A stretch of DNA of 40,827 nucleotides, taken from NCBI GenBank assembly GCA_004102785.1, contig SCEJ01000028.1, forward strand, positions 1-40,827, in the 5' to 3' direction. Position numbers and translations under genes: made by a program. Below are positions 18,335 through 40,652 of this stretch, piece by piece (position 1 is the stretch's first letter; each line of letters opens with the position of its first letter). The notes under the pieces are model-generated. The model was not told the origin of the DNA. It made no database searches and saw nothing but the letters and a program-made list of their open reading frames with translations. The DNA is from Muribaculaceae bacterium Isolate-013 (NCI) (lineage in GTDB: Bacteria; Bacteroidota; Bacteroidia; Bacteroidales; Muribaculaceae).

Positions 18335-18964
18335 TTACTGCGCGAGCATACGGTTCACAACATTCTGCACTGCCCTGTAATTGTCGCCAAGGCGTGCGCG
18401 GCGCTCGTCGCCGTTGCCATAGTCACCGCGTATAACCTTTGCAGCCTCGGCCTCCAGATCAATCGACGGTGAAGCCGAAGGAGTGACGGCCGGCGACGGC
18501 TCAGTCTGAGGCTGCTGCGGCTCATATGGAGTGGCGGCAGCTTCAGCAGAGGCGGCGGAGGCGGCCGCATCCGCGGCTACACTGTCGGCAGCCTCTGTTT
18601 CCGTAGCTGCCTGATCCGAGGCATCATTTTCCGACTCATCGCAGGGTGCCGGAGCCTGAATCTGTTCCGCCTGCTGGGGCTGTTGTGCGGTCTTCTCGGC
18701 GGAGTCGCATCCTCTGATACAAGCAATTACAATCACCACAAGCACGATAATGGAGCAAATCCATATCCAGGTCATCCTCATCGGTTTGCCGGTTTCAGGG
18801 GGATCGGGCAACTCCATCGGGGGCACATTCTCCGGCTGCGGGTGCTGGTGCATGGAAGCCGCCTCCTGAGGGATTTCCTTTTCAAGGTCGAAACTGCGCT
18901 TCACCGGCTTCTCCAGGTCGAAATTACGACGGCTCTTTCTGTTGTTATCATTTTCCTGTGCCAT
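18335..18964 (-). CDS. Single-pass membrane protein with Cpl-7-like wall-binding end
   Basis: 209 residues: a charged cytoplasmic start with a doubled RxFDLEK motif (NFDLEKPVKRSFDLEK, residues 14-29), one transmembrane helix at about 64-84 (WIWICSIIVLVVIVIACI), a long Ala/Glu/Pro/Gln-rich spacer, and a C-terminal module KVIRGDYGNGDERRARLGDN followed by YRAVQNVVNRML. The last part matches the CW_7 repeat of Cpl-7-type lysozymes (VIxGxWGNGxxRxxRL...YxxVQxxVN), which binds cell wall. It would therefore tether the membrane to peptidoglycan. Last gene of the locus, 98 nt after terD-like. The doubled FDLEK motif may be a docking or phosphorylation site (inference). Confidence 0.72.
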   Translation of the reverse strand: MAQENDNNRKSRRNFDLEKPVKRSFDLEKEIPQEAASMHQHPQPENVPPMELPDPPETGKPMRMTWIWICSIIVLVVIVIACIRGCDSAEKTAQQPQQAEQIQAPAPCDESENDASDQAATETEAADSVAADAAASAASAEAAATPYEPQQPQTEPSPAVTPSASPSIDLEAEAAKVIRGDYGNGDERRARLGDNYRAVQNVVNRMLAQ

Positions 18965-19062
18965 GTTCAGTTGTTAGTGTAAAGTTTGAAATAGTTGAAA
19001 TGCAGGCGCTGCTGCACCTGTCATATCAACAAATCCGAATGGCAAAAAGATTAAAACGACCT

Positions 19063-19695
19063 TTATGTGTAGATATCGATAAGAGTCTGCATTCCGCCTT
19101 CATGGCCCTCTCCGAGAGCCACGAATTCCCAGTCGCCGTCGTCATTGACGGCAAGTTTTGCAACCTCCACGGCCGTTTCGCTCGAGAATTTCTCTTTCAG
19201 GTCGTAGCGGCACAGTTCCTCGCCGGTCACTTCGTTGACGATAGTGATTGACGGTTCGCGCACGATGCCGAAAGTCAGCCCGTTCTTGTCGCCATGATAT
19301 ATTGTTACACAGAAAACAATCTCGGATACCCCCGGCGACACCTTCGCCAGGTTCACATGCATGGTCTCGCCATCACCACCGCTGAGGTCATCGGCCGAGC
19401 CGAGTACCGAATTGTCAGCCGACACGGGCACTGTGATCGCCATCCATGCCTTTTTGTTACCGTGCACGGATTTGTTGAAGGGCTCGTAAACACCGGTTTC
19501 AGGATTCGCGCGCCGTTGCGAGTTATAGAACACGAAGTCGGCATCATCGCCAATCACGCCGTTGTCACCGGTCAGAAATGCAGAGGCATCAAGGTCCGCC
19601 CCTGATTTCCAGTTAAGGTCAACACGGATTTTCTCAAGATCGCTCTCTTTGCTTAGCGAGAAGCGGTCACCTTTTTCAATCTGGAATCTTGCCAT
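19063..19695 (-). CDS. TerD-family calcium-binding stress protein
   Basis: 210-residue cytoplasmic protein of the TerD/TerZ/CABP family. The start MARFQIEKGDRFSLSK and the core VDLNWKSGADLDASAFLTG with DADFVFYNSQ are diagnostic; the acidic clusters around residues 35-53 and the SGGDGE segment are the family's calcium-binding positions. A second strand set (EIVFCVTIYHGD) completes the fold. ATG at 19695 chosen; the longer frame to 19770 runs into the upstream gene. It lies 10 nt after the small ASKHA gene. No terA, terB or terC is present, so this is TerD used as a part of another system rather than a tellurite operon. Confidence 0.92.
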   Translation of the reverse strand: MARFQIEKGDRFSLSKESDLEKIRVDLNWKSGADLDASAFLTGDNGVIGDDADFVFYNSQRRANPETGVYEPFNKSVHGNKKAWMAITVPVSADNSVLGSADDLSGGDGETMHVNLAKVSPGVSEIVFCVTIYHGDKNGLTFGIVREPSITIVNEVTGEELCRYDLKEKFSSETAVEVAKLAVNDDGDWEFVALGEGHEGGMQTLIDIYT

Positions 19696-19705
19696 AGTGT
19701 AAAAA

Positions 19706-21589
19706 TCAGAGATTTGAATATTTGAGTATAAGTTGGTCAATGTCAGCGACGTCCAGTCCGGCCTGCACATAAAGCGCCCTGGCGTTGCCGAGGGTGTTCA
19801 GGGCTGTCGGTGCCATAGCGTGGGTGGCCATGTTTGCCTGGCTGCGCAGGCGGGTTACATCGCGGCTTACATTAATGAGTTTCGTGCAGAGTTCGGCCAT
19901 AGCGCTGTTGCGCTCAAGGGCGAATTTACGCTTGGCCTCCATGAAACGTCCGGCTTTCATCAGTTCTGTTGCCGGTGCGTCGGGCGATACTGCCGGCCGC
20001 ACAACGGATGGAGCCTGCGACGCCGGAGCCGGCCGGGGTGTGGCCGGAGCTCTAAACCGCCCTGCCGTCTGCTCCATGAAGCCGGAGAACCTGCGGGCCG
20101 CTTCACCTGAAGTCTGCCCCACCGAATCGGATAGTTTGCGGGCCGCTTCACCTGAAGTCTGCTCCAGAGAGTCTGAGAGCTTGCGGGCAGCATCGCCGGC
20201 TTTTTTCACCAGGTCAAGGAGACTTTTCTTGTTGACACGCGTGACAGTGCGGTCATCAGCCTCCACAAGGCGTGCCTTCCAGTCATCGATCCAATGGTTA
20301 AGTTCGTCATTAAACTCCGATATGCCTGCGATTTTCAGGCCGTCCTTCAGCGTTTCGACCATCTCTATGGCCGCCTTGTAGTTGAAGTTCGGCTGGCGCG
20401 CCTTTGCTTTTGCTTCTGCCAGACGGATACGCTTCTCACGGCTCCAATAGCGGTACTTCTCGTCCGACATCGGTGCGTCGGGTACAGACATCGGTGCGCT
20501 CGGCACTGTCGCTCCGACCGGCCGCACTATGTTCGGGCGTGCCGAGATTATATAGTCGAGTATTGTATCACGCACACTCTCGCCGGTGTCGCCCTGCAAT
20601 TCCAACAGTTCACTGAAGAATGGGTTCAACTGGCTGCGGAAAAATTCGTTGCAGGTGTTCTCGCCCTTCAGTATCGCTGTGGTGGATTCGGGTGCCAGCC
20701 CCATGTCGTCGAGCATGATTCGCAGCCGTGTGCGCAGATCAGCATCGGCGCTGAGCGCCACGGCGGCCTTGGTGAGATATGCCTGGCCTGAAGTTCCGTC
20801 GGAAACGGTGATACGCACCGAAGCCGAAACCTTGCCGCTGTCAATAAACGCGCGCGCCTCCTCTTCGATATTTTGCAGGTCGATATCGCTGAACTCCACC
20901 CATGGATTATCCTTCTGTATATCGCCTTTTATTATTCCGATAGCCTTGACAAGCCGGGGGTCGCCCCCCTTCCCCTTGAGACACGCACGCCGCGGCTGCT
21001 CGTTGGAGTATTCACGGGTAGAATATGCCGTGCAGTAAAGGTCGGTGCCGTCCGACATTATCATCACCACGCTGTTATGCCTGATTTGGCGCTGAACAGC
21101 GTTTATGGCCAGCCGGTTGTAGTCAATTTCCCTGAGATTGCCGTAGCCTCCGGCCCTGAGCAGTTCGAGCACATAATCGCGTTCGCCGTCAGTGATATCC
21201 GGCCCGAAATTCAGAAATACAGGCATCCCGGCGCGGTTGGTCTCAAGATCACCGGCACGATTGAACAGAGTGTTCTTCAAGAACCTTTTCAGGCATGCCT
21301 CTATCGCATGGAAAAGCAACTTCTCATAGGAGTATTTCGTGCCGTTATAATCGAACACCCCATCCGTACGGGCCAGGGAGAAGATGTCGGAGAAAGCCCC
21401 CTCTACCCCGCGCCGGGCAGCGACAGCCGCATCCTCGCCTACCTCAATCTGCGAGCCATGGCAATATACGGCCAGCGGTGCAGGCCACACCCCGTCGAAG
21501 GTGCGCAGCCTGCGGTCGTCGCTGTCGTCGCGATAGTAGTGGAAAGCTATCGTGGTGTGGGTTATGGATATTACAACGTAATATTTCAT
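19706..21589 (-). CDS. Degenerate Hsp70/actin-fold (ASKHA-like) protein with coiled repeat tail
   Basis: 627 residues. It opens MKYYVVISITHTTIAFHYY, a strand-turn-strand like phosphate-1 of the Hsp70/actin fold but lacking the usual DxGTT glycines. VVMIMSDGTDLYCTAYS at about residue 180 resembles a weakened phosphate-2 loop, and MPVFLNFGPDITDGERDYVL resembles the region before it. Later parts are helical (DEKYRYWSREKRIRLAEAKA) and include three 15-residue repeats of the form AARKLSDSLEQTSGE. Probably an inactive or modified partner of the large ASKHA protein, whose TGA overlaps this ATG (21586-21589). The nucleotide-binding claim is inference from fold pattern only. Confidence 0.6.
   Translation of the reverse strand: MKYYVVISITHTTIAFHYYRDDSDDRRLRTFDGVWPAPLAVYCHGSQIEVGEDAAVAARRGVEGAFSDIFSLARTDGVFDYNGTKYSYEKLLFHAIEACLKRFLKNTLFNRAGDLETNRAGMPVFLNFGPDITDGERDYVLELLRAGGYGNLREIDYNRLAINAVQRQIRHNSVVMIMSDGTDLYCTAYSTREYSNEQPRRACLKGKGGDPRLVKAIGIIKGDIQKDNPWVEFSDIDLQNIEEEARAFIDSGKVSASVRITVSDGTSGQAYLTKAAVALSADADLRTRLRIMLDDMGLAPESTTAILKGENTCNEFFRSQLNPFFSELLELQGDTGESVRDTILDYIISARPNIVRPVGATVPSAPMSVPDAPMSDEKYRYWSREKRIRLAEAKAKARQPNFNYKAAIEMVETLKDGLKIAGISEFNDELNHWIDDWKARLVEADDRTVTRVNKKSLLDLVKKAGDAARKLSDSLEQTSGEAARKLSDSVGQTSGEAARRFSGFMEQTAGRFRAPATPRPAPASQAPSVVRPAVSPDAPATELMKAGRFMEAKRKFALERNSAMAELCTKLINVSRDVTRLRSQANMATHAMAPTALNTLGNARALYVQAGLDVADIDQLILKYSNL
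20093..20180 (-). repeat. 45-bp in-frame repeats in the small ASKHA gene
   Basis: The segment GCGGGCCGCTTCACCTGAAG recurs at a 45-bp interval and a third, diverged copy precedes it in the reading direction. It encodes three copies of AARxxSxxxEQTxGE, a heptad-like amphipathic helix. Confidence 0.7.
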
Positions 21590-24500
21590 CGTCTGCTTAG
21601 ATTCGGAATAAGGTAGTTGTCGTAGAACTTCATACCTTCGAGGATAATAATCGGCGCTACGAAGTCGAATTTGCCCTTGTGTTCGCGCTCCTTGTCGGCC
21701 GCCTGCTCGAACTCGGCGAGATTCTTTATGTAGCCGTCGATGTTCATATTGCGGAAACCTTCCATGAACACCTCCACCGGCATATTGAATCCCATCTTTG
21801 AGGCTGCTGTGTAGAACAGTTCGGCGAAGGCCATGAAACGCGGACAGGCGCATTTGCCGAAACCAGGCTGCGGAGCCTTGAAATATCGCCCGATATGCTT
21901 CATCATCAGCGGCGTCACACCGTTGTCGGCCTCAAGAGGGAGCTGGGTGTTGTCAGGACGCACAATCGAGAAACCGTCTTCGCCGATAATCTCGATCACA
22001 ACCTCGTCGCGCGGCACAAACAGGCGGTTATTGTTTGCCGCAAGCCCTTTGGAAACTTCATATTTCACATCGGGAGACGACTGTTTGGAAAGGTTGATAC
22101 GCGGCCAGTCGGCCAGCATCTGATACATCGCCTGCTCGCCGCCGAGCCCGAGCATGAACATACGCACATAATATTCGTTGGCCAGTTCATACTGGCTGGT
22201 GGTGCTGAACCACTCGAATATGCGCGCACCCTTGCCGGCGAACACCACCTGAACAACCGGTTTGCCGGTCCACGCACAGTCGGGGCTCTTTGACACCTCG
22301 CGGATAAGCTTTGCGGCAATCTGCCCGGCGTAGAAGGTGATGAGGCCGGTCACATACAGATTCACGCTCATAAGCTCGGGGCAGCGGGCGGCTATCTGCT
22401 TGTAGAAATCCGGCAGTTGCTCAGGCTTTAGACGGTCAACTATCTGCTCGAAGAAATATGGCGCCATATCAGGCTTGTAGACGCGCGGCCCCTTGTTGAG
22501 CCCCATCACCGACAGGCCGAAGCGCGAGCATATATCCTTGAGCACACTCTCGAAATTGGGAGCGAACTCAGTAGCCGCCGCAACCCTCTGCGCTGCGAAA
22601 CGGATGGAATTCTGCTTTATCATCGTTGTGCCCTGCTTCAGGCGGCATATGGCAGAGAAGTCGGTAGTGCTGCCTCCGATATCGAAACAGAGAGTAAGTT
22701 TATCGCCGGTATCTGCCTCCTTGGCCTTGACGAGATACGACGCCACGGCGCAAGCTTCCGTAAGGGAACGGTCATCAGGCAACGGAATCGGATTGAACGA
22801 AACCGGTTTATTGTTGTCGTCAGGCATGAAGTCGGGTATCTCCGGCTCTGCAGCCTGCGCCGGCTGTGCAAACCCTGACGGGGCACTGCCGAATCCGGCA
22901 TGCTCCTGCGGCTGGCTGCCACCGAACGTACCCGAACCAAAAACTCCACTGCCGAATGGTCCGCCGAAACCGGCGGATTCGTCAGATCCGGCTGCGACCG
23001 GTCTTTCCGAAGCGCTGTCGGCTGAGGCATCGCCGAACGCTCTGCCGAACGCTCCTCCGAAAGCACCGGAGCCTAAACCGCTGCCAAACGCTCCCGAGCC
23101 GAACGCTCCGGAGCCGAACGGAGAGTTGTCGCCTTTTCCGGCAAACACTCCGCCGTCAGCGGCACCTATCATGCCGCTGCGGTGCGGCCGCACATCAAGA
23201 ACTATTTTATTTCGGTTTTCATCCACAACAGGCGATATATCCTTAAGCGAATCCCATATTATGCGATAGGAATTAAGCAGATTGTCCCCCATCGAGGACG
23301 GATAGGACCATTTCATTGTCACCGGCACAACCCCCTCGTGGAACATCTGCGCATACACATGCAGCATCAGCGAACGGAGGAACGCCTCCTTGTGCGACTT
23401 GTCGATTTCCTGGTCACTCCACTTCATGTTATGGATCTGCGTCACATCGCCACAACCTGGGAATTTGAGTTTGATTTCCTTTTCCTCCACACCCGATACG
23501 GGCAGGTTATTGGAGAAACTCGGAAAACCGCCTTTCACTTCGCGGGCCATCATGCGGTTGTTGTCGCCCTCGTCGTCAACTCTCAGGCGCCGCGAGTCAT
23601 GTAGTGTGAGCACACTCTTTATGGCGTTTGACGCGATTTCGCCGTTCTGGAAAAAGAAAATCTGTTTCTCTTTCGGATTAGATATGTCACCGTCAGTGGC
23701 CGACGACAGCAGCGACACGCGATGGTTCCTGAATTCAAGCCCTTTCAGCTCGCTGTTATCCTTGTCGTAATAGGCCACAGAGGTGTTGGTGCTTCCGAAA
23801 TCGACACCGAGGCTGGCATTGCGCAGATTCACCTCTGTGCCGATTCCGTTGTAAGGCAACCCGGTGTTGCGGTCGGAGGAATAGTTTATCACAAGGAATC
23901 CACCCTCCTTCTGTGTCTGCGACAGCAGGCGCACCCCCTTGAACGGGAGATCCGACTCATATATCTCATATTTATACGAGTTGTCGGCCACACGGTTATC
24001 AGCTCCAACAAGGAGCGATGATTTCACAATCGGACGCCCCAGCGAGTCGGTGGGGTTTGTCATCTGACCGTCCTGGGCCAGGTATATCGGCTCGGAATTC
24101 GAGTCAAGCAATATGCAACTGCAGTCAGTGGCATCGTCAGCCACGAATGGCATTGCCCTATAAGGATGCTCCACGCTCTGGGCATTATGGGGCATCTCGC
24201 TGTAAAGGAAATAACGGGTCCAGTGACGCGATATGAAATCGGGCCACAGTATGAGGTCCTTCTTGTTTATTGCCTTGTCGGGCCGCACCGTATACGACTC
24301 TTTGAACGGACGGCGCTGCCCCTCGTTGGTGACAAGCGTGAGAGTAACCTCGAGGTTGTTCTCAAGCGCCTCCTCGTCATATACCGCCGTAAGGGTGGAG
24401 CGCAGGCTGTTTCCCTGCGGCGACACACCGGCGACGGCCCCGATATTACGACCGAACACATTCAGCCCCATCGCGCTCAGCGGGAGCGCAAAATAAGCAT

Positions 24501-25587
24501 ACTCCTCCGGCGACTGTTTTTTGGGAGCTTTGAGCACGTATACCGGCAGGTGGGCAAGGAGCCCGGGATTGCGGTCGTAAGTCTCGTCGAGCACGATGCG
24601 CGCTATTTCGCTGTCTTTGGGAAGAAGCGCCTTCTTCGGGTCGAAAGCGATATAGCCTTCAGTCGGATTAATTGTCAGAGAGCCATCCTTGCCGTAAAGC
24701 TGGTCCTTGAAGTTGAATACAAAGGAGAACGGCTCGTCGAAAGCGGCGTCGACCGGAGGGATACTTTTGCCGTCGAGCGAATATCCGTGGCTCTGGGCAT
24801 AGGCGGCAATCTCTTTGTGCCAGTCGGTGAGATTGTTGAGCAGATTGTTAAACGACGGCCTTATCGAAGCGTCAAGCTCCTGATAATAATTCTGCACACG
24901 CCCGATGTTATTGATAACATGCCCTACGTAGGCATAGAGCGCCCGGGTCTGGTCCTCATCCATATCGGCAAGGAGCGGGTCGATGAATTTACCCGTCTGC
25001 GGGTCGATCCACGGCCTCATCGAAGGATTCACCCGGTATCCGACCGATGTGAAAAGGAATGTCTCGGGTGAAGTGCCGCCTACAACCTTGCCGTCATATT
25101 TCACAATATTTATAAACGGCACCTGGCGTGCGGTGCTGTTTGACGGGGCACACCACAACGGCGCGCGCTCCAGCAGCATGTTGCCGAAAGCGCCGAGCGG
25201 CTCGTAGATATTCTCGGTCTCCCTCACATCCTTGCCGTCGTGATAGGCCAGGTCTATGCGGCGTACCTGGAACTTCGGATAATCCAGAGCCAGGGCGGCT
25301 ATAAAGCCCCTCCATTCTTTCACGAGAGCCTCATAGTAGCGGTTCAGGCCTGAGACTGACGCCGACGATGATTTGCCGGTGCGGTCAAGCGCAGCCTTGA
25401 AAAGGTCCAGGCGGGCGAAAGCGGTGGGTATGCCGGATACGATATCTCCTACATTGGTTGTGGCCTTTAGCGCGGGGGTCACTATGTCGCGCACAAAGAC
25501 AGGCATATTAAGAAGCTGCGACCACTTGCCGGATTCACCGGTAGGAAGGCCGGCCGTAGAGTCTATAACGATAGGTCTATTTGCCAT
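21586..25587 (-). CDS. Very large Hsp70-like ASKHA ATPase, possibly SrfB-related
   Basis: 1333 residues. The first roughly 590 are a large unrecognised region (MANRPIVIDSTAGLPTGESG at the start). An Hsp70/actin ATPase core follows: phosphate-1 LGVDFGSTNTSVAYYD near residue 590, phosphate-2 LCFDIGGSTTDFSAICRL near 965, and adenosine motif VQVVFAGKGARIFEWF near 1115. Between phosphate-1 and phosphate-2 lies a Gly/Ser/Phe/Pro-rich low-complexity insert (about 815-920, FGSGAFGSG-type repeats). The layout and the intact motifs recall SrfB-family proteins, an annotation I hold loosely. It starts 18 nt after the tubulin-like gene and overlaps the next gene by four bases, so three proteins are probably made together. 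Confidence 0.8.
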   Translation of the reverse strand: MANRPIVIDSTAGLPTGESGKWSQLLNMPVFVRDIVTPALKATTNVGDIVSGIPTAFARLDLFKAALDRTGKSSSASVSGLNRYYEALVKEWRGFIAALALDYPKFQVRRIDLAYHDGKDVRETENIYEPLGAFGNMLLERAPLWCAPSNSTARQVPFINIVKYDGKVVGGTSPETFLFTSVGYRVNPSMRPWIDPQTGKFIDPLLADMDEDQTRALYAYVGHVINNIGRVQNYYQELDASIRPSFNNLLNNLTDWHKEIAAYAQSHGYSLDGKSIPPVDAAFDEPFSFVFNFKDQLYGKDGSLTINPTEGYIAFDPKKALLPKDSEIARIVLDETYDRNPGLLAHLPVYVLKAPKKQSPEEYAYFALPLSAMGLNVFGRNIGAVAGVSPQGNSLRSTLTAVYDEEALENNLEVTLTLVTNEGQRRPFKESYTVRPDKAINKKDLILWPDFISRHWTRYFLYSEMPHNAQSVEHPYRAMPFVADDATDCSCILLDSNSEPIYLAQDGQMTNPTDSLGRPIVKSSLLVGADNRVADNSYKYEIYESDLPFKGVRLLSQTQKEGGFLVINYSSDRNTGLPYNGIGTEVNLRNASLGVDFGSTNTSVAYYDKDNSELKGLEFRNHRVSLLSSATDGDISNPKEKQIFFFQNGEIASNAIKSVLTLHDSRRLRVDDEGDNNRMMAREVKGGFPSFSNNLPVSGVEEKEIKLKFPGCGDVTQIHNMKWSDQEIDKSHKEAFLRSLMLHVYAQMFHEGVVPVTMKWSYPSSMGDNLLNSYRIIWDSLKDISPVVDENRNKIVLDVRPHRSGMIGAADGGVFAGKGDNSPFGSGAFGSGAFGSGLGSGAFGGAFGRAFGDASADSASERPVAAGSDESAGFGGPFGSGVFGSGTFGGSQPQEHAGFGSAPSGFAQPAQAAEPEIPDFMPDDNNKPVSFNPIPLPDDRSLTEACAVASYLVKAKEADTGDKLTLCFDIGGSTTDFSAICRLKQGTTMIKQNSIRFAAQRVAAATEFAPNFESVLKDICSRFGLSVMGLNKGPRVYKPDMAPYFFEQIVDRLKPEQLPDFYKQIAARCPELMSVNLYVTGLITFYAGQIAAKLIREVSKSPDCAWTGKPVVQVVFAGKGARIFEWFSTTSQYELANEYYVRMFMLGLGGEQAMYQMLADWPRINLSKQSSPDVKYEVSKGLAANNNRLFVPRDEVVIEIIGEDGFSIVRPDNTQLPLEADNGVTPLMMKHIGRYFKAPQPGFGKCACPRFMAFAELFYTAASKMGFNMPVEVFMEGFRNMNIDGYIKNLAEFEQAADKEREHKGKFDFVAPIIILEGMKFYDNYLIPNLSRR
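22860..23130 (-). repeat. FGSG low-complexity insert inside the ASKHA gene
   Basis: Short direct repeats (for example CCGAACGCTCC and close variants) encode FGSGAFGSG-like units in the middle of an ATPase core. The tract resembles FG-type disordered, possibly phase-separating sequence. Exact copy number may vary between strains. Confidence 0.7.
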
Positions 25588-27283: not shown

Positions 27284-27622
27284 TCAGAACCAGCTTGCGA
27301 GTTTGCCGCGGGTGCTCTTGCTGATAACAATGCCGAGAAGGATATACAGGGCGAATGCCGAGAAGGCGGCTATGCATGAGTGAATGAGAAACTTCGAGTA
27401 GAGAGTCGGTACTGTGATGGAGTTGACATTGACAAGGAAGTCGATGCCGAACGAGGCCACAAGGGTAAGGGCGCCGAACACCCAGAACCACACCTTGCGG
27501 GCCGCCACGTCGGAACGGTCGGGCTTGAATGAAATCATCTGCGATACAATCACAGCGAGAAGAAACATCGCTACAAAAACGATAATGGCCACCATGTAGC
27601 AGGGGAATACGGAGGTCTGCAT
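27284..27622 (-). CDS. Three-helix membrane protein
   Basis: 112 residues with three clear transmembrane segments: YMVAIIVFVAMFLLAVIVSQ (about 9-28), VWFWVFGALTLVASFGIDFL (44-63) and a third around residues 81-103 (CIAAFSAFALYILLGIVIS), joined by a basic cytoplasmic loop (FKPDRSDVAARK). No known family. Its place between the vWA-like membrane protein and the tubulin-like protein suggests that it links the outer and inner parts of the system. Confidence 0.72.
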   Translation of the reverse strand: MQTSVFPCYMVAIIVFVAMFLLAVIVSQMISFKPDRSDVAARKVWFWVFGALTLVASFGIDFLVNVNSITVPTLYSKFLIHSCIAAFSAFALYILLGIVISKSTRGKLASWF

Positions 27623-33341: not shown

Positions 33342-34508
33342 TTATCGCTGGTTGAGCCACTGCTGTATGCGTACGGCATCGGGATTGCCGAGAGTGGCAG
33401 CCTCGGCGCTCAGTTCATCAGCTTTAGCCTCATTCACAGCCGTGCCGCGCCCGAAACGATACATCGCCGAAAGTTTCAGCAGCACATCGGCACGCACATC
33501 CTTGTCGGTGAGTTTCGGACTGGCAAGCGCCTTGTTGAAATAGTCGAAAGCATTAGTGAAGTCCTTCGTCTTTGCATAATAATGGATACCGAGAAAATAT
33601 GCCGCCCTGGGATTGGATGAAGCGACCTTGCTCAGGTACCAGATCCCCTTTTTCTCATCGGCCGGGATATTGCCGATTCCGGTATAATACAGTTCGCCGA
33701 GGTTATAATACGCCTGTGAATTTGAATTCATCGACGACTTTCGCCAGTAGTCAAACACTTTGGTGTAATCATCGCTGCCGCTGAATGTATTGTATAAAAA
33801 CAGGGAAATTCCGGCATTGAGCCAAGAGTTACCCATACGCTCACTGTTCTTTTTAACATCGGTGGAATATTTCGAGTAGCGGTACCAGTCGTCGGCCGCC
33901 TTCTCATAGTACTCGGCGGACTTCCTGTAATCATCAGCCTCAAGCGTTTTCATTCCCTTCCGGTAGTAAAAATCGCCAAGCATATCGTCGCGTGTGCCAT
34001 AGAAAACCATCTCGCTGTTGTCGGTCGAGAAGTATGCCAGCCTGGCATTCTCCATCAGCAGTATCGCCTTGTCAAGATCTTCTTCAAGGCCGTATTTTCC
34101 GTTTGCATAAAAGTTGGCAAGGTTGATACGCGACTGAAACCGGGCATCGGAAAAGGCATCAGGATTATCCACGCAAAGCTTGAAGAGGCGTATCCCCTCC
34201 TGGGGGTTCGTCTCCACCCCTTTCCCCTGCATGTAGTATACCGCAAGATCAAATTGCGATGAGCCGTAGCCGGCCGCCGCCGCCTTAGCGTACCAATAGG
34301 CGGCCTTCGCAAAATCCTGTTCAGCTCCGCGCAAGCCCTCCGCGTAGCTGCGGGCAAGATAATACTGGGCCTTATGGTCATCCTTACCGGCAAGTTTCTC
34401 CAGCTTGCCCACATTCATTTCATGATATTTCTTCGCACCGTAAACCGGAGCGGCAGCAATTACAGCCAATGAAGCCGCTACTGCAAGTATGTATTTTCTC
34501 ATATTCAT
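33342..34508 (-). CDS. Exported Sel1/TPR-like repeat protein
   Basis: 388 residues with a Sec signal (MNMRKYILAVAASLAVIAAA followed by PVYGA) and Sel1 repeats such as ARSYAEGLRGAEQDFAKAAY, LAVYYMQGKGVETNPQEGIR and LGELYYTGIGNIPADEKKGI. The middle is more TPR-like with Tyr-rich helices. It begins 20 nt after the kinase gene, so the pair are probably one unit, and it may be the periplasmic partner of the kinase's outer domain. ATG at 34508 preferred; 34502 possible; the TTG at 34514 is unlikely. Confidence 0.86.
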   Translation of the reverse strand: MNMRKYILAVAASLAVIAAAPVYGAKKYHEMNVGKLEKLAGKDDHKAQYYLARSYAEGLRGAEQDFAKAAYWYAKAAAAGYGSSQFDLAVYYMQGKGVETNPQEGIRLFKLCVDNPDAFSDARFQSRINLANFYANGKYGLEEDLDKAILLMENARLAYFSTDNSEMVFYGTRDDMLGDFYYRKGMKTLEADDYRKSAEYYEKAADDWYRYSKYSTDVKKNSERMGNSWLNAGISLFLYNTFSGSDDYTKVFDYWRKSSMNSNSQAYYNLGELYYTGIGNIPADEKKGIWYLSKVASSNPRAAYFLGIHYYAKTKDFTNAFDYFNKALASPKLTDKDVRADVLLKLSAMYRFGRGTAVNEAKADELSAEAATLGNPDAVRIQQWLNQR

Positions 34509-34528: not shown

Positions 34529-36094
34529 TCAGAATGGGTAGCTTCCGACCGAGGGATCGTCATAATAGCCGGCAGCCTTCAGAGTCTCGGCCACTCTCTT
34601 TGCCTGGGCTGTGCCTGAGCCTGCGGCGGCAGCCAGCCGCACATACTGGTCGGCCATCTTGTACTGGCGTCCCTGGAAGTATTTCTCAGCCAAAGGCGCG
34701 TATGCTTTCACATATCCTTTGGCGGCGAGAGCCTTGAAATCGTCAAGGGTGCGTGCGGCGGCGAATTGCGCGTCAAGGTTATCGGCGGGAGCCGACGGCA
34801 AGCCCGGAACAGGTTCAGGTTTCGCCATTTCCGGCTCCTTAGGCTCAGGTTTCCGGGCCTCCTCCTCGCCGGAAACTTTGCCGGAGCCGTCAGACTCATT
34901 TCCGGATGCGGTCATATCATCGACAACCTGAGCTACATCCGTTTGATTCAGACTGTCAGCCGCGACTTCCTCCGCATACATGGCAACAGAATCAGCCGCC
35001 TCCACGCCTGCATTCCCGCTGCCCGACGAAGGGATGTTCTTAACCAGCAAAACACCGCCGGCCAACAGTGCGCACACACCAAGCGCCAACAGAGCGGGTT
35101 TCAAGTATCGCGAATAATCCGTGGTGCGTCGGCGTCTGCCAAGTTCAAGGAGATAGGTTGCATTGCCGTCTGTATGATGGTCGGCTATGTCAAGGCCAAG
35201 CTCCTCGGCAAATTTCTCGACCGACTGCGTGCGGTCCTCCTTGTCGCGGCGCAAAGACTTCACAAGTGCGTCCTGCACGCGCTCCGACACCCCCTCAGGA
35301 AGTGCGTCGATGATTTTCCTTGCAGAAATCTCACTTGACTTCACCGGCCATTTCGCCGTGAGAAGATAGAGCATTGTGGCGCCCAGGGCATAGACATCGG
35401 CCTGCGGAGTGAATGTTGTAAGCCCCAGGTATTGCTCCTGCGGAGCGAAGCCGTCGGTGCATCCGGCTGCAGTGAGTTCCGAAGTCGCCTTCCCCTTTTT
35501 GTCGTAATGCTTGGAAAGGCCGAAATCAATCAGCACTGGACGCAGCGAACCATCGTCCTGCCTGGTGAGGATTATGTTCTCGTGCTTGATATCCAGATGT
35601 GTTATCCGGTTCCGGTGCAGCAGAGCGACAGCCTGAAGCACCGGCCGTATCACGCTCAACGCCTGCTGCTCGGTCAACGGAGTGTCCTTGTGCTTCCTTA
35701 TATAACGCAGCAGATCGTCGCCGGGTACAAACTCCATCACATAATAGGCGGTGTTGTTGGCCTTGAACACCTCGTAGATGGCCACTATGTTGGGGTGCGC
35801 TATGTTTTGGCGGTCAAGCCGCCGCGCCTCGGTTATAAAATCGTCAAGGCCGTTCTCGATAATATCTCTGTTTGATTTGAGATATGATATGGAGTGGTTG
35901 TCATCGCGCTCGCACAGCTCCTTGCGGAAATATTCCTTCATGGCGAACACGCGGCCGTCGGAGAGTCGCTCCACCTTGTAGGTTATGCCGAATCCCCCCG
36001 CGCCGAGCACTTTCTCCACTCGGTAGCGGTGCTGGCCGGAACTGATTACAACTCCAGGCGCCAAGGCGCCTGCATGTGTCTTATCATCACTCAT
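34529..36094 (-). CDS. Transmembrane Ser/Thr protein kinase with outer Sel1-like domain
   Basis: 521 residues. Cytoplasmic Hanks-type kinase (about 23-300): Gly loop LGAGGFGITYK (30-40), Lys53 in FAMKEY, Glu89, catalytic loop HLDIKHENI with Asp168, DFG at 190-192 and APQE (217-220). The usual HRD Arg is absent (HLD), so this is a non-RD kinase that may not need activation-loop phosphorylation. One transmembrane helix at about 332-352, then a Pro/Glu-rich stalk (KPEPKEPEMAKPEPVPG) and a C-terminal Sel1-like helical module (FKALAAKGYVKAYAPLAEKY). It starts 5 nt after the PP2C gene. The topology suggests that it senses an envelope signal and phosphorylates FHA partners inside. Confidence 0.93.
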   Translation of the reverse strand: MSDDKTHAGALAPGVVISSGQHRYRVEKVLGAGGFGITYKVERLSDGRVFAMKEYFRKELCERDDNHSISYLKSNRDIIENGLDDFITEARRLDRQNIAHPNIVAIYEVFKANNTAYYVMEFVPGDDLLRYIRKHKDTPLTEQQALSVIRPVLQAVALLHRNRITHLDIKHENIILTRQDDGSLRPVLIDFGLSKHYDKKGKATSELTAAGCTDGFAPQEQYLGLTTFTPQADVYALGATMLYLLTAKWPVKSSEISARKIIDALPEGVSERVQDALVKSLRRDKEDRTQSVEKFAEELGLDIADHHTDGNATYLLELGRRRRTTDYSRYLKPALLALGVCALLAGGVLLVKNIPSSGSGNAGVEAADSVAMYAEEVAADSLNQTDVAQVVDDMTASGNESDGSGKVSGEEEARKPEPKEPEMAKPEPVPGLPSAPADNLDAQFAAARTLDDFKALAAKGYVKAYAPLAEKYFQGRQYKMADQYVRLAAAAGSGTAQAKRVAETLKAAGYYDDPSVGSYPF

Positions 36095-36099
36095 CGCAA

Positions 36100-37059
36100 T
36101 TATCCGAATATCTTTTTTAAGAACGAACTTATTTTAGACTTAAAAGACAAGCTCGATGAGGAGACCTCCTTAATTTCTTCGCGCGTCACATCAATCGGGG
36201 CTGTGGTCACGCAAGGTGCATCGCCGTCAATCTCCACCGATGAGGTTTCACCATCTGCCTGAGGTTCATTTTCCAGGCCGGGGCCGCATTCAGCCTCTCC
36301 GCAGTCCACACCGGCCACACCTATCAGGATTGCAGTATTGTTATCCGACGAATCCTCCGACATTTTGGCCAATTCAGCGATTTTCTCCCCGTCGGGCTTA
36401 TCCGAAGAGAGTATATCGAGCAGCGCCCGGTCGGAAACCTTGTCCAGCACACCGTCGGTGCACATGAAGAAGTAGTCGCCCGGCTCCACATCCGCAATCT
36501 GCATGGTAGTGGCCGTGGGACGCTCCTCTCCGGGCGCCACATACCCCATGCAACGTGTGATTATATTCTTTTTGGGATGGTCGATAGCCTGCTGCGGGGT
36601 GATTACCCCCGAATGCACCAGGGCGTTGACAAGCGAGTGGTCGTCACTCTGGTACATGATGCCGACTCCGGGGCGCACATGATAGATGCGGCTGTCGCCG
36701 ATATGTGCGGCCAGCACTCCACCGCCATTCACGCACACGAGAGTGAGCGTCGTGGCCATTTCGTGCGTGTCGCCGGCCATCCGCCGGTTGAGTGCGCGGA
36801 ACGCACAGTCAAGCACCAGAGTGAGCTCGGCGGGGGTAAACTCATTTGTAAAGTCCACGCGCTCCATGTAAGCGCCTATGGCATCGGCCACAGTGCGCGA
36901 TGCCACCTCCCCTTTGTCGTGCCCCCCCACGCCATCGCACACCACAAAGGCATGCGTCAGCGCCGAAGGGCGGTCGGCATCAGGATAGCGGGCATCCTCC
37001 TGATTTGCCCGCCTCCCTTTCTGGCAGAAAGAATAGGGTTGTCTGAGTGTGATATTCAT
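36100..37059 (-). CDS. PP2C-type Ser/Thr phosphatase
   Basis: 319-residue metal-dependent phosphatase. Signature residues are present: VVCDGVGGHDKGE (Asp42, Gly43), HIGDSRIYHVR, SDDHSLVNALVHSGVI, MCTDGVLDKVSD (Asp201) and DNNTAILIG (Asp239). After the catalytic domain (to about 250) there is an acidic linker and an amphipathic basic end (SLSFKSKISSFLKKIFG), which may bind membrane. Its ATG overlaps the stop of the FHA gene (TGATG), and the kinase follows after 5 nt, so kinase and phosphatase are expressed together and should oppose each other. Confidence 0.94.
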   Translation of the reverse strand: MNITLRQPYSFCQKGRRANQEDARYPDADRPSALTHAFVVCDGVGGHDKGEVASRTVADAIGAYMERVDFTNEFTPAELTLVLDCAFRALNRRMAGDTHEMATTLTLVCVNGGGVLAAHIGDSRIYHVRPGVGIMYQSDDHSLVNALVHSGVITPQQAIDHPKKNIITRCMGYVAPGEERPTATTMQIADVEPGDYFFMCTDGVLDKVSDRALLDILSSDKPDGEKIAELAKMSEDSSDNNTAILIGVAGVDCGEAECGPGLENEPQADGETSSVEIDGDAPCVTTAPIDVTREEIKEVSSSSLSFKSKISSFLKKIFG

Positions 37060-37772
37060 CAGTTCTGTCGGTCAAAACGGAATTTTGTGGTGCCCATCAC
37101 TATGGTATCGCCGAAGTTGAGCGATACCGACTCGCCGTTCATCAGCACCGAGCCGTTGTGTATCACGGGATTGACAGCTTTGATAACAGTGAGTTTGAAA
37201 GTGTAGCCGTTCTCGGTGGTGTTCATGTCAATCTGCACCGACCGGCGCGACATTGTTTTGTCGCCCTTGATTGAGATATCCGACGGCGCCGAGGCATCCT
37301 CGCGGCCTATGATATTACGTCCTTCGCGCAAAGGGAAATCCTTATTGAGCAGATATTTGCGGAGCAACACAAGCTTCCCGCTGATAAACTGCGCAGAATC
37401 AGAGGCATGCGGCTTGGTTTTTTGCTTGACGAACGCTTTCAGCGGCCCCTTGCAACGGGGGCAGGCAAATGCCTTGTCGCCGGGCACTTTCGACTGGAAC
37501 GATATTTTATGAGCGTGGCAATGGGGGCACTCCACCTCATAGCGCTCGTTGACAATGAAAGTGTCGCTGAATGCTATCGGCTCGGCTTTCGAATTATCGG
37601 GGACATCGGGCGCCGGAGCGGCATCCATGCCAGGAATCCTGACACGCATCTTCGCCGAGCAGTGCGGACATGCTATCGGGTATATCCCCGACTTGGCCGG
37701 GCGCTTGATTTTTATCGGTCGGGAGCACTCCTTGTTCTGACAACGGAGCACAAGTACTTCATTCTGTGCCAT
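37059..37772 (-). CDS. Double zinc-ribbon FHA protein
   Basis: 237 residues, soluble. Two zinc ribbons come first: Cys11/Cys16 with Cys35/Cys38, and Cys82/Cys85 with Cys104/Cys107 (ECPHCHAHKI, ACPRCKGPLK). The last 100 residues are an FHA domain: NIIGRE (153-158), TMSRRSVQI (173-181) and the closing MNGESVSLNFGDTIVMGTTK. FHA domains read phospho-Thr, so it is a likely target or adaptor of the kinase. ATG at 37772 is used; a longer frame to 37889 runs into the neighbouring gene. Its stop overlaps the PP2C start. Confidence 0.88.
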   Translation of the reverse strand: MAQNEVLVLRCQNKECSRPIKIKRPAKSGIYPIACPHCSAKMRVRIPGMDAAPAPDVPDNSKAEPIAFSDTFIVNERYEVECPHCHAHKISFQSKVPGDKAFACPRCKGPLKAFVKQKTKPHASDSAQFISGKLVLLRKYLLNKDFPLREGRNIIGREDASAPSDISIKGDKTMSRRSVQIDMNTTENGYTFKLTVIKAVNPVIHNGSVLMNGESVSLNFGDTIVMGTTKFRFDRQN

Positions 37773-37776: not shown

Positions 37777-38628
37777 TCAGCCGAGCATATCCTGTGCAAG
37801 TGAATCGGCGCCGAAATCATCCATATCGCCGCTGTCGTCGGCGGCGAGGTAGGTGTCGTCATCGTGAATCTCAAGCTCCACATCGTCAACGGTCGTGCCG
37901 GTGTTCAGTGCCACAACGTCACCTTGTTCGTCAACAAACGGATTTCCGTGCTCGTCGCCCAGCACATCGAACACGTTATCGTTGTCGAGGTCAATCATAG
38001 TGAGCTGATTGCCGTATTCGTCATGAAACGATGCTGTGGTCATCGCCTCGCCATAAACGTTGTAGACCGTGCCGATTTCATCAAACGACACCACATCAGC
38101 CATGTCAATGTCGTTGGGGTCAATCATCTCCTCCGAAATTATTGCCTCAGCGATTTCGTCGGGATTCACCGGCTCTGGTTCAGGTTCAGGCTCTGGTTCA
38201 GGCTCTACCACAGGCTCGCCGCCGGGATTTACCGCCACAGGCTCCTCCGGCTCTGTAACGTGACCGGTTTCCACCGGTTCTTCCGGCACTTCCGGTTCTT
38301 CCAGACTGATTACAATATCATCGCCGCCGGCCACGAACTCCTCCGACGAGGCCTGCGGCTGCGGTGTGGCCTGCTGCTGCGGTGTGGCCTGCTGCTGGGG
38401 CTGAGGTGATGCAGGCTGCTGTGACTGCTGTGACTGTGAAACATCAGGCGCGGCATCCTGGAGGGCTGCATTCTCCTGCGGCTGCGGCTCATCGCTGCCG
38501 TTGCCGCTGGCGGCGTAACCGGCGGCAGCTCCTCCGATTCCGGCCGCTGCTGCTGCGCCTGCTGCTGCAGCAAATCCTGATTTGCCTTTACCTTTCTGTG
38601 ACTTGTCGATAGGCTTGGTGTCGTTCAT
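37777..38628 (-). CDS. Gly/Ala hydrophobic segment plus acidic tail protein (copy 1)
   Basis: 283 residues. The Lys-rich start MNDTKPIDKSQKGKGKSG leads into FAAAAGAAAAAGIGGAAAGY, then a Gln/Pro-rich spacer, a Glu-Pro run (PEPEPEPEPEP) and a very acidic C-terminus with Asp/Asn-rich, calcium-loop-like stretches (MIDLDNDNVFDVLGDEHGNP), ending ADSLAQDMLG. Same plan as the protein at 31053-31697, so probably paralogues. No known family. The repeats LDNDNVFD and DEHGNPFVDEQGD look like metal-binding loops. Promoter at 38664-38695. ATG at 38628. Confidence 0.74.
   Translation of the reverse strand: MNDTKPIDKSQKGKGKSGFAAAAGAAAAAGIGGAAAGYAASGNGSDEPQPQENAALQDAAPDVSQSQQSQQPASPQPQQQATPQQQATPQPQASSEEFVAGGDDIVISLEEPEVPEEPVETGHVTEPEEPVAVNPGGEPVVEPEPEPEPEPEPVNPDEIAEAIISEEMIDPNDIDMADVVSFDEIGTVYNVYGEAMTTASFHDEYGNQLTMIDLDNDNVFDVLGDEHGNPFVDEQGDVVALNTGTTVDDVELEIHDDDTYLAADDSGDMDDFGADSLAQDMLG
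38171..38393 (-). repeat. In-frame hexamer and 18-bp tandem repeats
   Basis: GGTTCA/GGCTCT-type hexamers (38171-38206) encode the Glu-Pro run. Two perfect copies of an 18-bp unit (38358-38375, 38376-38393) encode repeated QQATPQ. All units are multiples of three, so length changes would keep the frame. Confidence 0.75.
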
Positions 38629-38786: not shown

Positions 38787-39551
38787 TTACTTCTGTTTCT
38801 TTGCGGGTTTCGGAGCGGCGGGCTTGTCGGTCCAGTCGGCCACAACCACATTATGCAGTGACGCCGGAGCTTTGAGCTGAGGATGCTGTTTGCCCTGCGA
38901 ACGGCGCACAACATCGGCATGTATATATTTGAAAAGTTCAAGCACGGTCACCTTGCGGTCGCCATTCTTGTCTGATTTGCCGCGCAGTCCTTTCATCAGA
39001 GCCTGCGTGAAGAACCCTGCTCCAAGAAAAGGATTCTCGGCCGAATACTCGTTGTCGCGGCACGAAAGGAAAAACATCAGTCCTTTTGTGTCGGCCACAT
39101 CGTCCATCCAGCTTGAATCAGTGGCACTATGGGCCATGGTGCCGGCAAAACAGGCGTCGACAAAACAGATTTTCTCTTTGGCGGCCGAGGTTGAAAGCAC
39201 TTTCAGCAGGTCGTCATACGGAATCGGACGGTCGTAGGCGCAGATTGCCCCCGGCATCCCGTGCCCGGAATAGAAGAACACCACACGGTCGCCGGCCTGG
39301 GCGCGGTTGCATATGGCGCGCAGCTTCTCCAGCACGTTGGCATAAGTAACATTCGACGATGTGAGCAGCGTTATATCCTTAGTCTGCGTCGACATCACTT
39401 TAGCGAAGTTCTTCGCATCCTTGGTGGTCTGGGCTAGGTTGTTGGCCTCGTCGCCATAGTTTGACACTCCGGTAACAAGCACGAATGTGCGCGCCTGCAT
39501 ACCGGCCATTGCCATAAGCAGAATTAAAAGCGAAAAAAATATGCGTTTCAT
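38787..39551 (-). CDS. Exported caspase-fold peptidase (C14 family)
   Basis: 254 residues with a Sec signal peptide (residues 1-20, ending MAGMQA). The caspase fold is clear: RTFVLVTGVSNYGDEANNLA, the catalytic His in VVFFYSGHGMPG (His97) and the catalytic Cys in ICFVDACFAGTM (Cys133). DKNGDRKVTVLE (194-205) looks like an EF-hand loop, as in many bacterial metacaspase relatives. A basic Pro/Lys tail closes it. A signal peptide on a caspase inside a kinase/FHA locus is unusual: the protease would act in the periplasm or outside. Substrate unknown. It starts 49 nt after the membrane FHA gene. Confidence 0.9.
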   Translation of the reverse strand: MKRIFFSLLILLMAMAGMQARTFVLVTGVSNYGDEANNLAQTTKDAKNFAKVMSTQTKDITLLTSSNVTYANVLEKLRAICNRAQAGDRVVFFYSGHGMPGAICAYDRPIPYDDLLKVLSTSAAKEKICFVDACFAGTMAHSATDSSWMDDVADTKGLMFFLSCRDNEYSAENPFLGAGFFTQALMKGLRGKSDKNGDRKVTVLELFKYIHADVVRRSQGKQHPQLKAPASLHNVVVADWTDKPAAPKPAKKQK

Positions 39552-39600
39552 AAATCAGGTATTTTTCATGTTGACAATTATCTGGCATCCGTGTGACAGC

Positions 39601-40251
39601 TCACCTGGCCTTGCAGCGCGAGCACTGGCGGTGTTCGACATCAAACTCCGAGAGCGGACGCTCGCACCGGGGGCAGACAATAACCTTCTCCCTGCGGCGG
39701 CGCACCGCCTTCAGCGACACGGCATTGCCGTTGAAGAGCACTCCCATAACCACCGGAGCGCTTGAAATGAGTATATAGCGCAGATCGGGCGGCACGGAAG
39801 CCACTTTCAGCCGGTCGAGCACAAAACATATGGCTATCACGGCGAATCCGGCGAATTTTGCTATCCATCCGTTGCGCTCCATGATTTTCTCTTTCTTACG
39901 CTCCTCCTCAAGCTGGCGACCCATCATACGTTTCAACTGCAGGAACTCATATTCATAATCGTCGTGGGCCGGAGCGAGCAGATGCCCTGCGGTAAAGACG
40001 AAGCTGCCGCTGTCGCCGCCCCCGAGACGTATTATGGTATCCTTTGATATACGTTTGGTATAGACGCGGTGGAACACCCCCTTGTCATCGCGCACAAAAG
40101 TGCCGTTTGTGGAGTCAAGGTCCTCAAGCGCCCAGCAACCATGGTCGTCAACCGTTATCTTCACATGGCGTCCGCTGACACTGTTGCAGTGCTGCGGCAC
40201 CTTCACCATCGTGCCGTTTTCGTTACGGCCTATTATATATTCCATACTCAT
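39601..40251 (-). CDS. FHA protein with two membrane helices and zinc ribbon
   Basis: 216 residues. The N-terminal FHA domain has YIIGRN (5-10), SVSGRHVKI (24-32) and LEDLDSTNGTFV (42-53), all the conserved phospho-Thr-binding positions. A charged helix (LEEERKKEKIMER) leads to two transmembrane helices (about 128-146 and 156-173) and a C-terminal zinc ribbon (CPRC at 193-196, CSRC at 210-213). Both ends should be cytoplasmic. It could recruit phosphorylated partners to the membrane. ATG at 40251 lies 2 nt after the LytTR stop; the GTG at 40257 is less likely. Confidence 0.88.
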   Translation of the reverse strand: MSMEYIIGRNENGTMVKVPQHCNSVSGRHVKITVDDHGCWALEDLDSTNGTFVRDDKGVFHRVYTKRISKDTIIRLGGGDSGSFVFTAGHLLAPAHDDYEYEFLQLKRMMGRQLEEERKKEKIMERNGWIAKFAGFAVIAICFVLDRLKVASVPPDLRYILISSAPVVMGVLFNGNAVSLKAVRRRREKVIVCPRCERPLSEFDVEHRQCSRCKAR

Positions 40252-40253
40252 TG

Positions 40254-40652
40254 TCACTCTTTGTCAGGCGAAGACGTTTCCGGGCGGCCGCCGGCAAACA
40301 TGGTGCCGATTCTCTCCTTATACTGCTTCAAAAGCGGTTTCGGCACTGAAAGCGGATAGGTGTTGGCCTCATAGTCGGAAAGAGTCACACGCTGGCGTGT
40401 AACGCTGATTTCCGTAAGATAGGTCTGGTTGATTATCAGCGAGCGACCCAGACGCACAAACGGCGACGGCTGGCTTGCCGGCCACGAGCGTCTGATGAAC
40501 TCCTCGACTTTTGAAAGCCCGAGCGTGAGCAGGTGTGTCTTGCCTCCGATATAAGTCAGTTGCGTGTAGTTGCCGTTTGCCTGAAAAAATGCAACTTTCG
40601 ACAAATCTATTATAAGCAGCTCGTCACGCGAATTGATACATAGCCTGTACAT
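40254..40652 (-). CDS. Stand-alone LytTR DNA-binding protein
   Basis: 132 residues, essentially only a LytTR domain: LLIIDLSKVAFFQANGNYTQ, LTLGLSKVEEFI and FVRLGRSLIINQTYLTEIS are the family's strands and loops. There is no receiver or membrane domain, so it is not a classical two-component regulator. Placed first in the minus-strand locus, it is the natural candidate regulator of it. ATG at 40652 is favoured because a TATCTTTG box ends at 40695; the TTG at 40697 would lie inside that box. Confidence 0.87.
   Translation of the reverse strand: MYRLCINSRDELLIIDLSKVAFFQANGNYTQLTYIGGKTHLLTLGLSKVEEFIRRSWPASQPSPFVRLGRSLIINQTYLTEISVTRQRVTLSDYEANTYPLSVPKPLLKQYKERIGTMFAGGRPETSSPDKE

What the first reader, a model, noticed from the sequence alone, without database searches (positions are those of the whole stretch)
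18335..40652. A 22-kb one-strand locus joining kinase signalling, caspase, tubulin-like, Hsp70-like and TerD parts
Every gene over 22 kb is on the minus strand, with many stop/start overlaps or gaps under 20 nt. Each recognised family (Hanks kinase, PP2C, FHA, caspase, Sel1, vWA-like, Tubulin_2, ASKHA, TerD, radical SAM, LytTR) is individually known, and TerD proteins are known to travel with vWA and signalling modules. I do not know a described system with this full set. The topology suggests an envelope sensor layer, a phospho-relay and a cytoplasmic ATP/GTP-driven core. A role in stress, phage or contact-dependent conflict is inference.
Basis: partly seen in the sequence, partly recalled or inferred. 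Interest (0 to 1): 0.95.

Follow-up and report, generated by a model that had tools for sequence, protein, structure and literature searches.

The report
Tubulin–Hsp70–TerD envelope operon beside signalling cluster
A Bacteroidales bacterium carries, side by side, two separate gene clusters: one is a variant of a predicted envelope machine that pairs a tubulin-like protein with two Hsp70-like proteins and a TerD protein, and the other is a phosphorylation-signalling cluster with a caspase-like protease that happens to be its neighbour.

Summary
The one-strand run at 18335-40652 is real, but reads best as two modules. Module A (18335-29187) is a predicted 7-gene operon: vWA-like protein, 3-TM protein, tubulin-like GTPase, large Hsp70-like ATPase, a second Hsp70-fold protein (seen by structure prediction; phosphate-1 loop lost), TerD, and a TM protein with a wall-binding CW_7 repeat. 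Among 80 Bacteroidota loci the core order is complete in 65. The last genes alternate: TerD in 51, DO-GTPase/GAP1-N2-like in 15, other in 3, undetermined in 11. Module B (29431-40652) is a kinase/PP2C/FHA/caspase/Sel1 cluster. No module B gene was found near these 80 loci, and a terminator-like hairpin plus a promoter-like box separate the modules. Against full separation: outside the family both occur in 2 of 291 genomes, 0.15 expected (P 0.008), on separate contigs. Module A is a new variant of the FtsZl1 and DO-GTPase/GAP1 tubulin/HSP70 systems (Makarova & Koonin 2010; Kaur et al. 2020): TerD stands where the GTPase/GAP1 pair stands, and the window's genome has neither of those. Most likely role: an NTP-driven envelope scaffold for stress or phage conflict. 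The function is inference.

The parts
27676..29187 (-). Module A, gene 1: vWA-like protein, one N-terminal TM helix, predicted periplasmic
27284..27622 (-). Module A, gene 2: 112-aa protein with three TM helices
   Evidence: hydropathy; 75 of 80 loci
25606..27234 (-). Module A, gene 3: tubulin/FtsZ-like GTPase
   Evidence: Tubulin_2 20.8 bits (cut-off 27) and Tubulin 19.3 bits (cut-off 33), both below cut-off; GGTGMR and FGGTGASS loops invariant in 11 of 11
21586..25587 (-). Module A, gene 4: large Hsp70-like (ASKHA) ATPase with a ~590-aa N-terminal region and an FG-rich insert
   Evidence: phosphate-1 and phosphate-2 residues invariant in 13 of 13 rows; weak PDB profile hits to Hsp70s, best E 0.013; 79 of 80 loci; insert
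19706..21589 (-). Module A, gene 5: second Hsp70-fold protein, phosphate-1 loop lost, variable C-terminal part
19063..19695 (-). Module A, gene 6: TerD, the only TerD match in the genome
   Evidence: PF02342 2.5e-41; one match in the own genome
18335..18964 (-). Module A, gene 7: single-TM protein with C-terminal CW_7 repeat (wall binding recalled)
   Evidence: PF08230 5.9e-12; TM 65-83; in 10 relatives scanned the slot holds CW_7 in 4 and OmpA in 6
29276..29283 (-). Promoter-like box TATCTTTG ahead of module A
   Evidence: that TAnnTTTG is the Bacteroides -7 consensus is recalled
29366..29409 (-). Terminator-like hairpin between module B and module A (19-bp stem)
18276..18309 (-). Terminator-like hairpin at the end of module A (14-bp stem; also scored on the plus strand)
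29431..31005 (-). Module B: Sel1-repeat protein with signal-like N-terminus
   Evidence: Sel1 5.3e-55; hydropathy
31053..31697 (-). Module B: Gly/Ala-rich segment plus acidic protein
   Evidence: sequence; relative in G445
31829..32845 (-). TIGR04133 radical SAM/SPASM protein inside module B; probably a passenger
   Evidence: 478 bits, cut-off 425; no match in the six other module B loci read
33342..34508 (-). Module B: Sel1-repeat protein with signal-like N-terminus
   Evidence: Sel1 4.4e-28
34529..36094 (-). Module B: Hanks-type kinase with one TM helix
   Evidence: Pkinase 2.3e-37; TM 333-351
36100..37059 (-). Module B: PP2C phosphatase
   Evidence: PP2C_2 1.7e-13
37059..37772 (-). Module B: zinc-ribbon plus FHA-like protein
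   Evidence: weak Yop-YscD_cpl and Zn-ribbon matches, all below cut-off
37777..38628 (-). Module B: Gly/Ala-rich plus acidic protein, EF-hand-like by eye
   Evidence: sequence
38787..39551 (-). Module B: caspase-like protease with signal-like N-terminus
   Evidence: Peptidase_C14 9.2e-25
39601..40251 (-). Module B: FHA protein with two TM helices
   Evidence: FHA 4.4e-10
40254..40652 (-). Module B: single-domain LytTR regulator
   Evidence: LytTR 9.7e-07

Best explanation
Module A is an accessory operon that builds an NTP-driven scaffold under and across the cell envelope. Inferred working: the vWA-like domain in the periplasm senses a ligand or wall damage; the 3-TM protein passes this inwards; the tubulin-like GTPase polymerises at the membrane; the large Hsp70-like ATPase, helped by a degenerate Hsp70-fold partner, controls assembly much as FtsA or a chaperone would; the TM/wall-binding protein ties the assembly to the wall; TerD (Ca2+ or nucleotide-like ligand, recalled) is the switch or output and takes the place held by the DO-GTPase/GAP1 pair in sister operons. 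The purpose is most likely envelope stress or phage/contact conflict. Shown: gene content, order, one Hsp70 fold by confident model, motif conservation, tail exchange, patchy distribution. Inferred: topology beyond hydropathy, polymerisation, sensing and the biological role. Module B is a separate kinase-PP2C-FHA-caspase cluster that is adjacent here.
For: In 80 of 80 loci the core genes found share one strand; 65 of 80 show the full order; 290 of 305 core junctions are within 100 nt. Tail: TerD 51, DO-GTPase-like 15, other 3, undetermined 11 of 80 (Pfam checked in 2 of the 15), with at least 3 changes forced by well-supported branches on the tubulin tree. The protein after TerD has one TM helix in 44 of 47 loci and CW_7 or OmpA in 10 of 10 scanned. 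Second Hsp70 fold. No DO-GTPase2 or GAP1-N2 in the window's genome, one TerD. Patchy: 11 of 198 family genomes. Modules A and B separate.
Confidence: 0.55

Rival explanations
1. The whole 22 kb is one system: module B phosphorylates parts of module A, as kinase and PP2C genes accompany some FtsZl1 and GAP1-N2 operons.
For: Adjacent and co-directional here. G016 and G077 carry both, 2 found against 0.15 expected outside the family, P 0.008, or 0.003 with the stricter count of A. In those two the caspase lies with FHA-type and kinase genes; no PP2C was found on the stretches fetched. G077 has a PP2C gene after its tubulin-ATPase pair and a kinase two genes on, on the other strand. Published kinase themes.
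Against: No module B gene near 80 module A loci; 61 of the 80 hold at least 3 kb and 58 at least 5 kb on the vWA side. No excess in the family: 3 found, 2.5 expected. Terminator-like hairpin and promoter-like box between them.
Confidence: 0.18
2. Module A is a membrane-remodelling or vesicle machine with no defence role (the Makarova and Koonin reading).
For: vWA, tubulin-like, OmpA or CW_7 and TM parts match their FtsZl1 gene set.
Against: Patchy presence: 11 of 198 in the family, 10 of 295 in the order, 3 strong of 296 in the phylum, window included; alternating tails. Neither excludes it.
Confidence: 0.25
3. Module A is a metal or tellurite stress system because of TerD.
For: TerD matches its profile over nearly its whole length.
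Against: No other TerD in the genome; 15 of 80 sister operons have a DO-GTPase tail instead; no other Ter family was matched in the window genes scanned.
Confidence: 0.07

Closest known systems
DO-GTPase/GAP1 systems, GAP1-N2 type (Kaur et al. 2020, PMC7159879; abstract and sections 27-29 read, other passages by term search)
   Same: Tubulin, HSP70 and vWA genes, wall-binding and TM parts. A passage in its section 6 names a class that combines the GTPases with tubulin homologues and an HSP70. Of 80 sister loci, 15 carry a DO-GTPase-like gene and 14 are labelled GAP1 after it, by session profiles; in Pfam both DO-GTPases tested pass PF19993, one of two GAP1 genes passes PF20013 and one falls short, 22.3 against 24.
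   Different: The window's genome has neither gene. Section 29 calls the tubulin, HSP70 and kinase themes non-overlapping and places them in Firmicutes and Actinobacteria; here tubulin and two Hsp70-like proteins sit together in Bacteroidota. TerD is named once there, as an effector of other (VMAP) systems. Its figures and tables were not seen.
FtsZl1 (Tubulin_2) operons (Makarova & Koonin 2010, PMC2875224; parts 1-2 of 5 read, other passages by term search)
   Same: Divergent tubulin, vWA protein, OmpA-type protein, sometimes kinases and a GTPase with a cysteine-rich domain; a Bacteroides member is in their alignment.
   Different: Hsp70, DnaK, FtsA and tellurite do not occur in the text; figures and extra files were not seen. 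The window protein scores under the Tubulin_2 cut-off.
FtsZ-FtsA cell-division pair (recalled)
   Same: A tubulin-family GTPase encoded beside an actin/Hsp70-superfamily ATPase; a cyanobacterial relative of the ATPase has a weak FtsA match, E 0.0028, below cut-off.
   Different: The ATPase is about 1100-1480 aa with a large N-terminal region; vWA, TerD and wall binders are added. A weak analogy.
Ter systems (a passage in PMC7824862; Anantharaman et al. 2012 recalled, not held)
   Same: TerD with a vWA protein near the membrane, described there as blocking phage or xenobiotics.
   Different: No TerB, TerC, TerF or TelA match in module A; TerD follows a tubulin/Hsp70 core. One relative (L161) has a TerB-like match just under cut-off.

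Membership tests
GAP1-N2 DO-GTPase system | DO-GTPase gene | tested here: not met
   PF19993 (DO-GTPase2): no match in the own genome; one of 14 control genomes rings. DO-GTPase1 was not searched genome-wide
GAP1-N2 DO-GTPase system | GAP1 with GAP1-N2 domain | tested here: not met
   PF20013: no match in the own genome; one of 14 control genomes rings
GAP1-N2 DO-GTPase system | Tubulin or HSP70 accessory genes | tested here: met
GAP1-N2 DO-GTPase system | FNIII-repeat component | tested here: inconclusive
   no Pfam match in the window's 715-aa ORF or in two sister proteins; FNIII-like repeats seen by eye in L103, not tested
FtsZl1 (Tubulin_2) family and operon | Tubulin_2 domain over cut-off | tested here: inconclusive
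   20.8 bits, cut-off 27; loops conserved
FtsZl1 (Tubulin_2) family and operon | Extended coiled coil and helical C-terminal domain after the GTPase domain | not tested
   no coiled-coil prediction run; the protein is 542 aa
FtsZl1 (Tubulin_2) family and operon | vWA protein in the operon | tested here: met
   modest Z, so met by fold plus motif together
FtsZl1 (Tubulin_2) family and operon | Wall-binding OmpA-type protein in the operon | tested here: met
   CW_7 in the window, OmpA in relatives
Hsp70 superfamily (second Hsp70-fold gene) | Hsp70 nucleotide-binding-domain fold | tested here: met
Hsp70 superfamily (second Hsp70-fold gene) | Intact phosphate-1 motif (ATP hydrolysis) | tested here: not met
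   no acidic residue among the five commonest at the matching position of the 59-row alignment; the place of the motif was set by eye
Canonical Ter system | TerD with TerC/TerF/TelA partners | tested here: inconclusive
   none matched among the window genes scanned; TerC, TerF and TelA were not searched genome-wide; TerD is single
Known anti-phage system in PADLOC | Match of the tubulin, ATPase or TerD gene to a PADLOC model | tested here: not met
   no match for these three at E <= 0.1

The most novel reading that the evidence does not exclude
Bacteroidota carry a dual-cytoskeleton immune machine: a tubulin-like polymer whose assembly is run by an active Hsp70/actin-superfamily ATPase (FG-rich in many Bacteroidales) and a pseudo-Hsp70 partner, clamped between a periplasmic vWA sensor and a wall anchor, with an exchangeable output cassette, either TerD or DO-GTPase/GAP1. 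The tubulin-ATPase pair is older than the phylum, since cyanobacterial plasmids carry it in the same order.
Probability: 0.3. Interest if true: 0.85.

Novelty: new variant of a known kind. Interest (0 to 1): 0.6.

Why it matters
TerD in place of DO-GTPase/GAP1 behind a constant tubulin/Hsp70 core is not mentioned in what I saw of the papers found by the searches listed under Tried and rejected; it links TerD to the tubulin/HSP70 conflict systems and makes the role of TerD directly testable by comparing the two tails. Strains in named genera (Pedobacter, Chitinophaga, Segatella copri) carry it. It also shows an Hsp70 fold that the Pfam search missed.

Tried and rejected
One 22-kb system: rejected as an operon, kept as a functional rival; its odds were raised from 0.15 to 0.18 on recheck because the stricter count of A gives P 0.003. 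SrfB-type ASKHA, from memory: no such Pfam match. PDB sequence profiles: nothing for the vWA-like protein, nothing significant for the tubulin. Foldseek for the vWA-like model: no match at E <= 0.001, and its first row is not a vWA fold. Empty-site comparison: of nine flanking proteins only the two butyrate-pathway ones matched, weakly, and only in G445, so insertion history is unresolved. Phages: no match. Plasmids: three cyanobacterial records, two opened. Not-in-print claim for the TerD variant: searches; the library is open-licence only, most listed papers were seen as listings only, figures and supplements were not seen, and searches returned no paper (looked for 'tubulin2', since '_' is passed over). 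The tool kept the best 80 of 171 relatives, so distant ones are under-sampled; the 80 include identical or near-identical pairs (L096/L099, L155/L156, L121/L123).
Full report
What is there. The window is a whole 40,827-base contig of a 3.3-Mb genome in 385 contigs. From 18335 to 40652 I genes, all on the minus strand. Families were checked with Pfam and, for part of the genes, PADLOC and NCBIfam (10 proteins each).

Two modules. Module A is 18335-29187, module B 29431-40652. In same-family genomes module A was read in 9 loci other than the window (G334, G328, G424, G300, G436, G347, G306, G431, G365; the tenth, G398, was not fetched) and no module B gene lay beside it; module B was read in 6 loci (G445, G435, G428, G388, G139, G397) with no module A gene on the stretch. 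Several of these contigs are short. In 80 named loci, the best of 171 relatives, with up to 10 kb on each side where the contig allows, no module B gene was found; 61 of 80 hold at least 3 kb and 58 at least 5 kb on the vWA side. The B profiles rest on 4 to 7 sequences, and on one for two genes, so distant B genes could be missed.

Co-occurrence. In 198 family genomes, A by its ATPase gene is in 11 and B by its caspase at E < 1e-25 in 45; both in 3 (G000, G347, G431), expected 2.5, P 0.47. A caspase hit alone does not prove a whole module B. In the order sample of 295, A by its tubulin at E < 1e-30 is in 10, B caspase at E < 1e-25 in 7, both in G000, G016 and G077. Without the family, 291 genomes hold 9 A, 5 B and 2 with both, expected 0.15, P 0.008; with A counted only where the ATPase lies beside the tubulin (6), expected 0.10, P 0.003. 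In the seven caspase stretches opened, FHA-type genes were found in 7, kinases in 5 and PP2C in 4; some of these contigs are short. So adjacency was seen only in the window, while a looser tie cannot be excluded.

Transcription signs. Between the modules lie a terminator-like hairpin with a 19-bp stem (29409-29366) and a TATCTTTG box 96 nt before the vWA-like gene. Of 8 TAnnTTTG boxes on the minus strand, 5 lie within 100 nt before a gene (LytTR, second acidic gene, radical SAM, first acidic gene, vWA-like) and none lies inside module A. The two longest-stem terminator hits on the minus strand sit at the end of module A and between the modules. Overall terminator and sigma-70 counts do not exceed shuffles. 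The box as a Bacteroides promoter consensus is recalled, and no shuffle test of it was made.

Module A core. Of 80 loci, tubulin is in 80, the ATPase in 79, vWA-like in 76, 3-TM in 75, second Hsp70-fold protein in 72. The full order is in 65 of 80; the core genes found share one strand in 80 of 80; 290 of 305 junctions are within 100 nt, median gap 15. The ATPase has invariant phosphate-1 and phosphate-2 residues in 13 of 13 aligned rows, and its profile finds Hsp70s in the PDB weakly (E 0.013). A 40-residue stretch with at least 45% G+F occurs in 24 of 89 ATPase sequences, which include repeat copies of the same loci. The core is looser further out: in 10 order-level tubulin loci outside the family the ATPase is beside the tubulin in 6.

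Exchangeable tail. After the core, 51 of 80 loci have TerD (often two) and then mostly a single-TM protein; 15 have a DO-GTPase-like gene, followed by a gene labelled GAP1 in 14; 3 have other genes; 11 are cut or undetermined. These labels come from session profiles; Pfam was run on 2 of the 15. Only L123 holds both TerD and DO-GTPase, with TerD on the other side and strand. On a 72-row tubulin tree the tail changes at least 4 times, 3 forced by well-supported branches; the tree has long branches, and the TerD label of G365 is weak (E 2.6e-4 by phmmer; no Pfam match). The protein after TerD has one TM helix in 44 of 47 loci; of 10 scanned, 4 carry CW_7 and 6 OmpA. The window's genome has no DO-GTPase2, no GAP1-N2 and just this TerD.

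Spread. Strong tubulin matches: 10 of 295 in the order and 3 of 296 in the phylum, window included; the ATPase in 11 of 198 in the family. No hit in phage records. One IMG/VR contig carries vWA, 3-TM, tubulin, ATPase and CW_7 genes in order; the three proteins between ATPase and CW_7 were not matched, and two look TerD-like by eye. Three cyanobacterial plasmids match the tubulin distantly; in the two opened, an ATPase-like gene of about 1100 aa follows.

Comparison. Makarova & Koonin 2010 (parts 1-2 of 5 read, plus term passages) predict a membrane-remodelling machine from FtsZl1, vWA, kinase, GTPase and OmpA genes. Kaur et al. 2020 (abstract and sections 27-29 read, plus passages) describe DO-GTPase/GAP1 systems: one passage names a class with GTPases, tubulin and HSP70 together, another calls the tubulin, HSP70 and kinase themes non-overlapping. 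So tubulin with Hsp70 is not itself new. What I did not find there is the Bacteroidota form without DO-GTPase and GAP1 and with TerD in their place. It is a new variant of that kind. It fails the strict GAP1-N2 definition, and its FtsZl1 membership is inconclusive.

Verdict. The best reading is an envelope scaffold for stress or phage conflict (0.55 for the explanation as a whole). The function is not shown. Interest was lowered from 0.62 to 0.60 on recheck, because of the Kaur passage on tubulin with HSP70.

Noticed in passing
L045 14383-16889 (G000 contig C319): A second tubulin-like gene in the same genome, next to a 368-aa piece that by eye resembles only the N-terminal part of a large ASKHA protein.
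   Followed up: partly
L181 7974-12906; L182 7983-12879: Cyanobacterial plasmids carry a tubulin-like gene followed by an ATPase-like gene of about 1100 aa, the same order as in module A.
   Followed up: partly
window 23035-23154 (ATPase residues 812-851): FG-rich low-complexity insert in the ATPase domain, Gly/Leu-rich in some relatives, resembling nucleoporin repeats by eye.
   Followed up: partly
L161 12498-14072: TM/CW_7 protein with a TerB-like match at 24.3 bits, just under the 24.4 cut-off.
   Followed up: no
window 31829-32845: TIGR04133 radical SAM/SPASM protein within module B; whether its usual lipoprotein partner (recalled) exists was not searched.
   Followed up: no
L039 2543-11565: In G077 the tubulin-ASKHA pair is followed by PP2C, a 472-aa protein and an opposite-strand kinase.
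   Followed up: partly
L191, L192, L193: Caspase, FHA, PP2C and kinase genes cluster in other Bacteroidales families too, in varying order; one paper search for this set listed only Kaur et al. 2020.
   Followed up: partly
L078+L079 (G347 contig C13) 18216-34262: A 5348-aa open reading frame close to module A.
   Followed up: no
L123: A divergent TerD pair upstream of a module A operon that has the DO-GTPase/GAP1 tail.
   Followed up: no
L096: A contig filed under Candidatus Saccharibacteria has a tubulin identical to that of a Bacteroidales contig (L099); probably a binning error.
   Followed up: no
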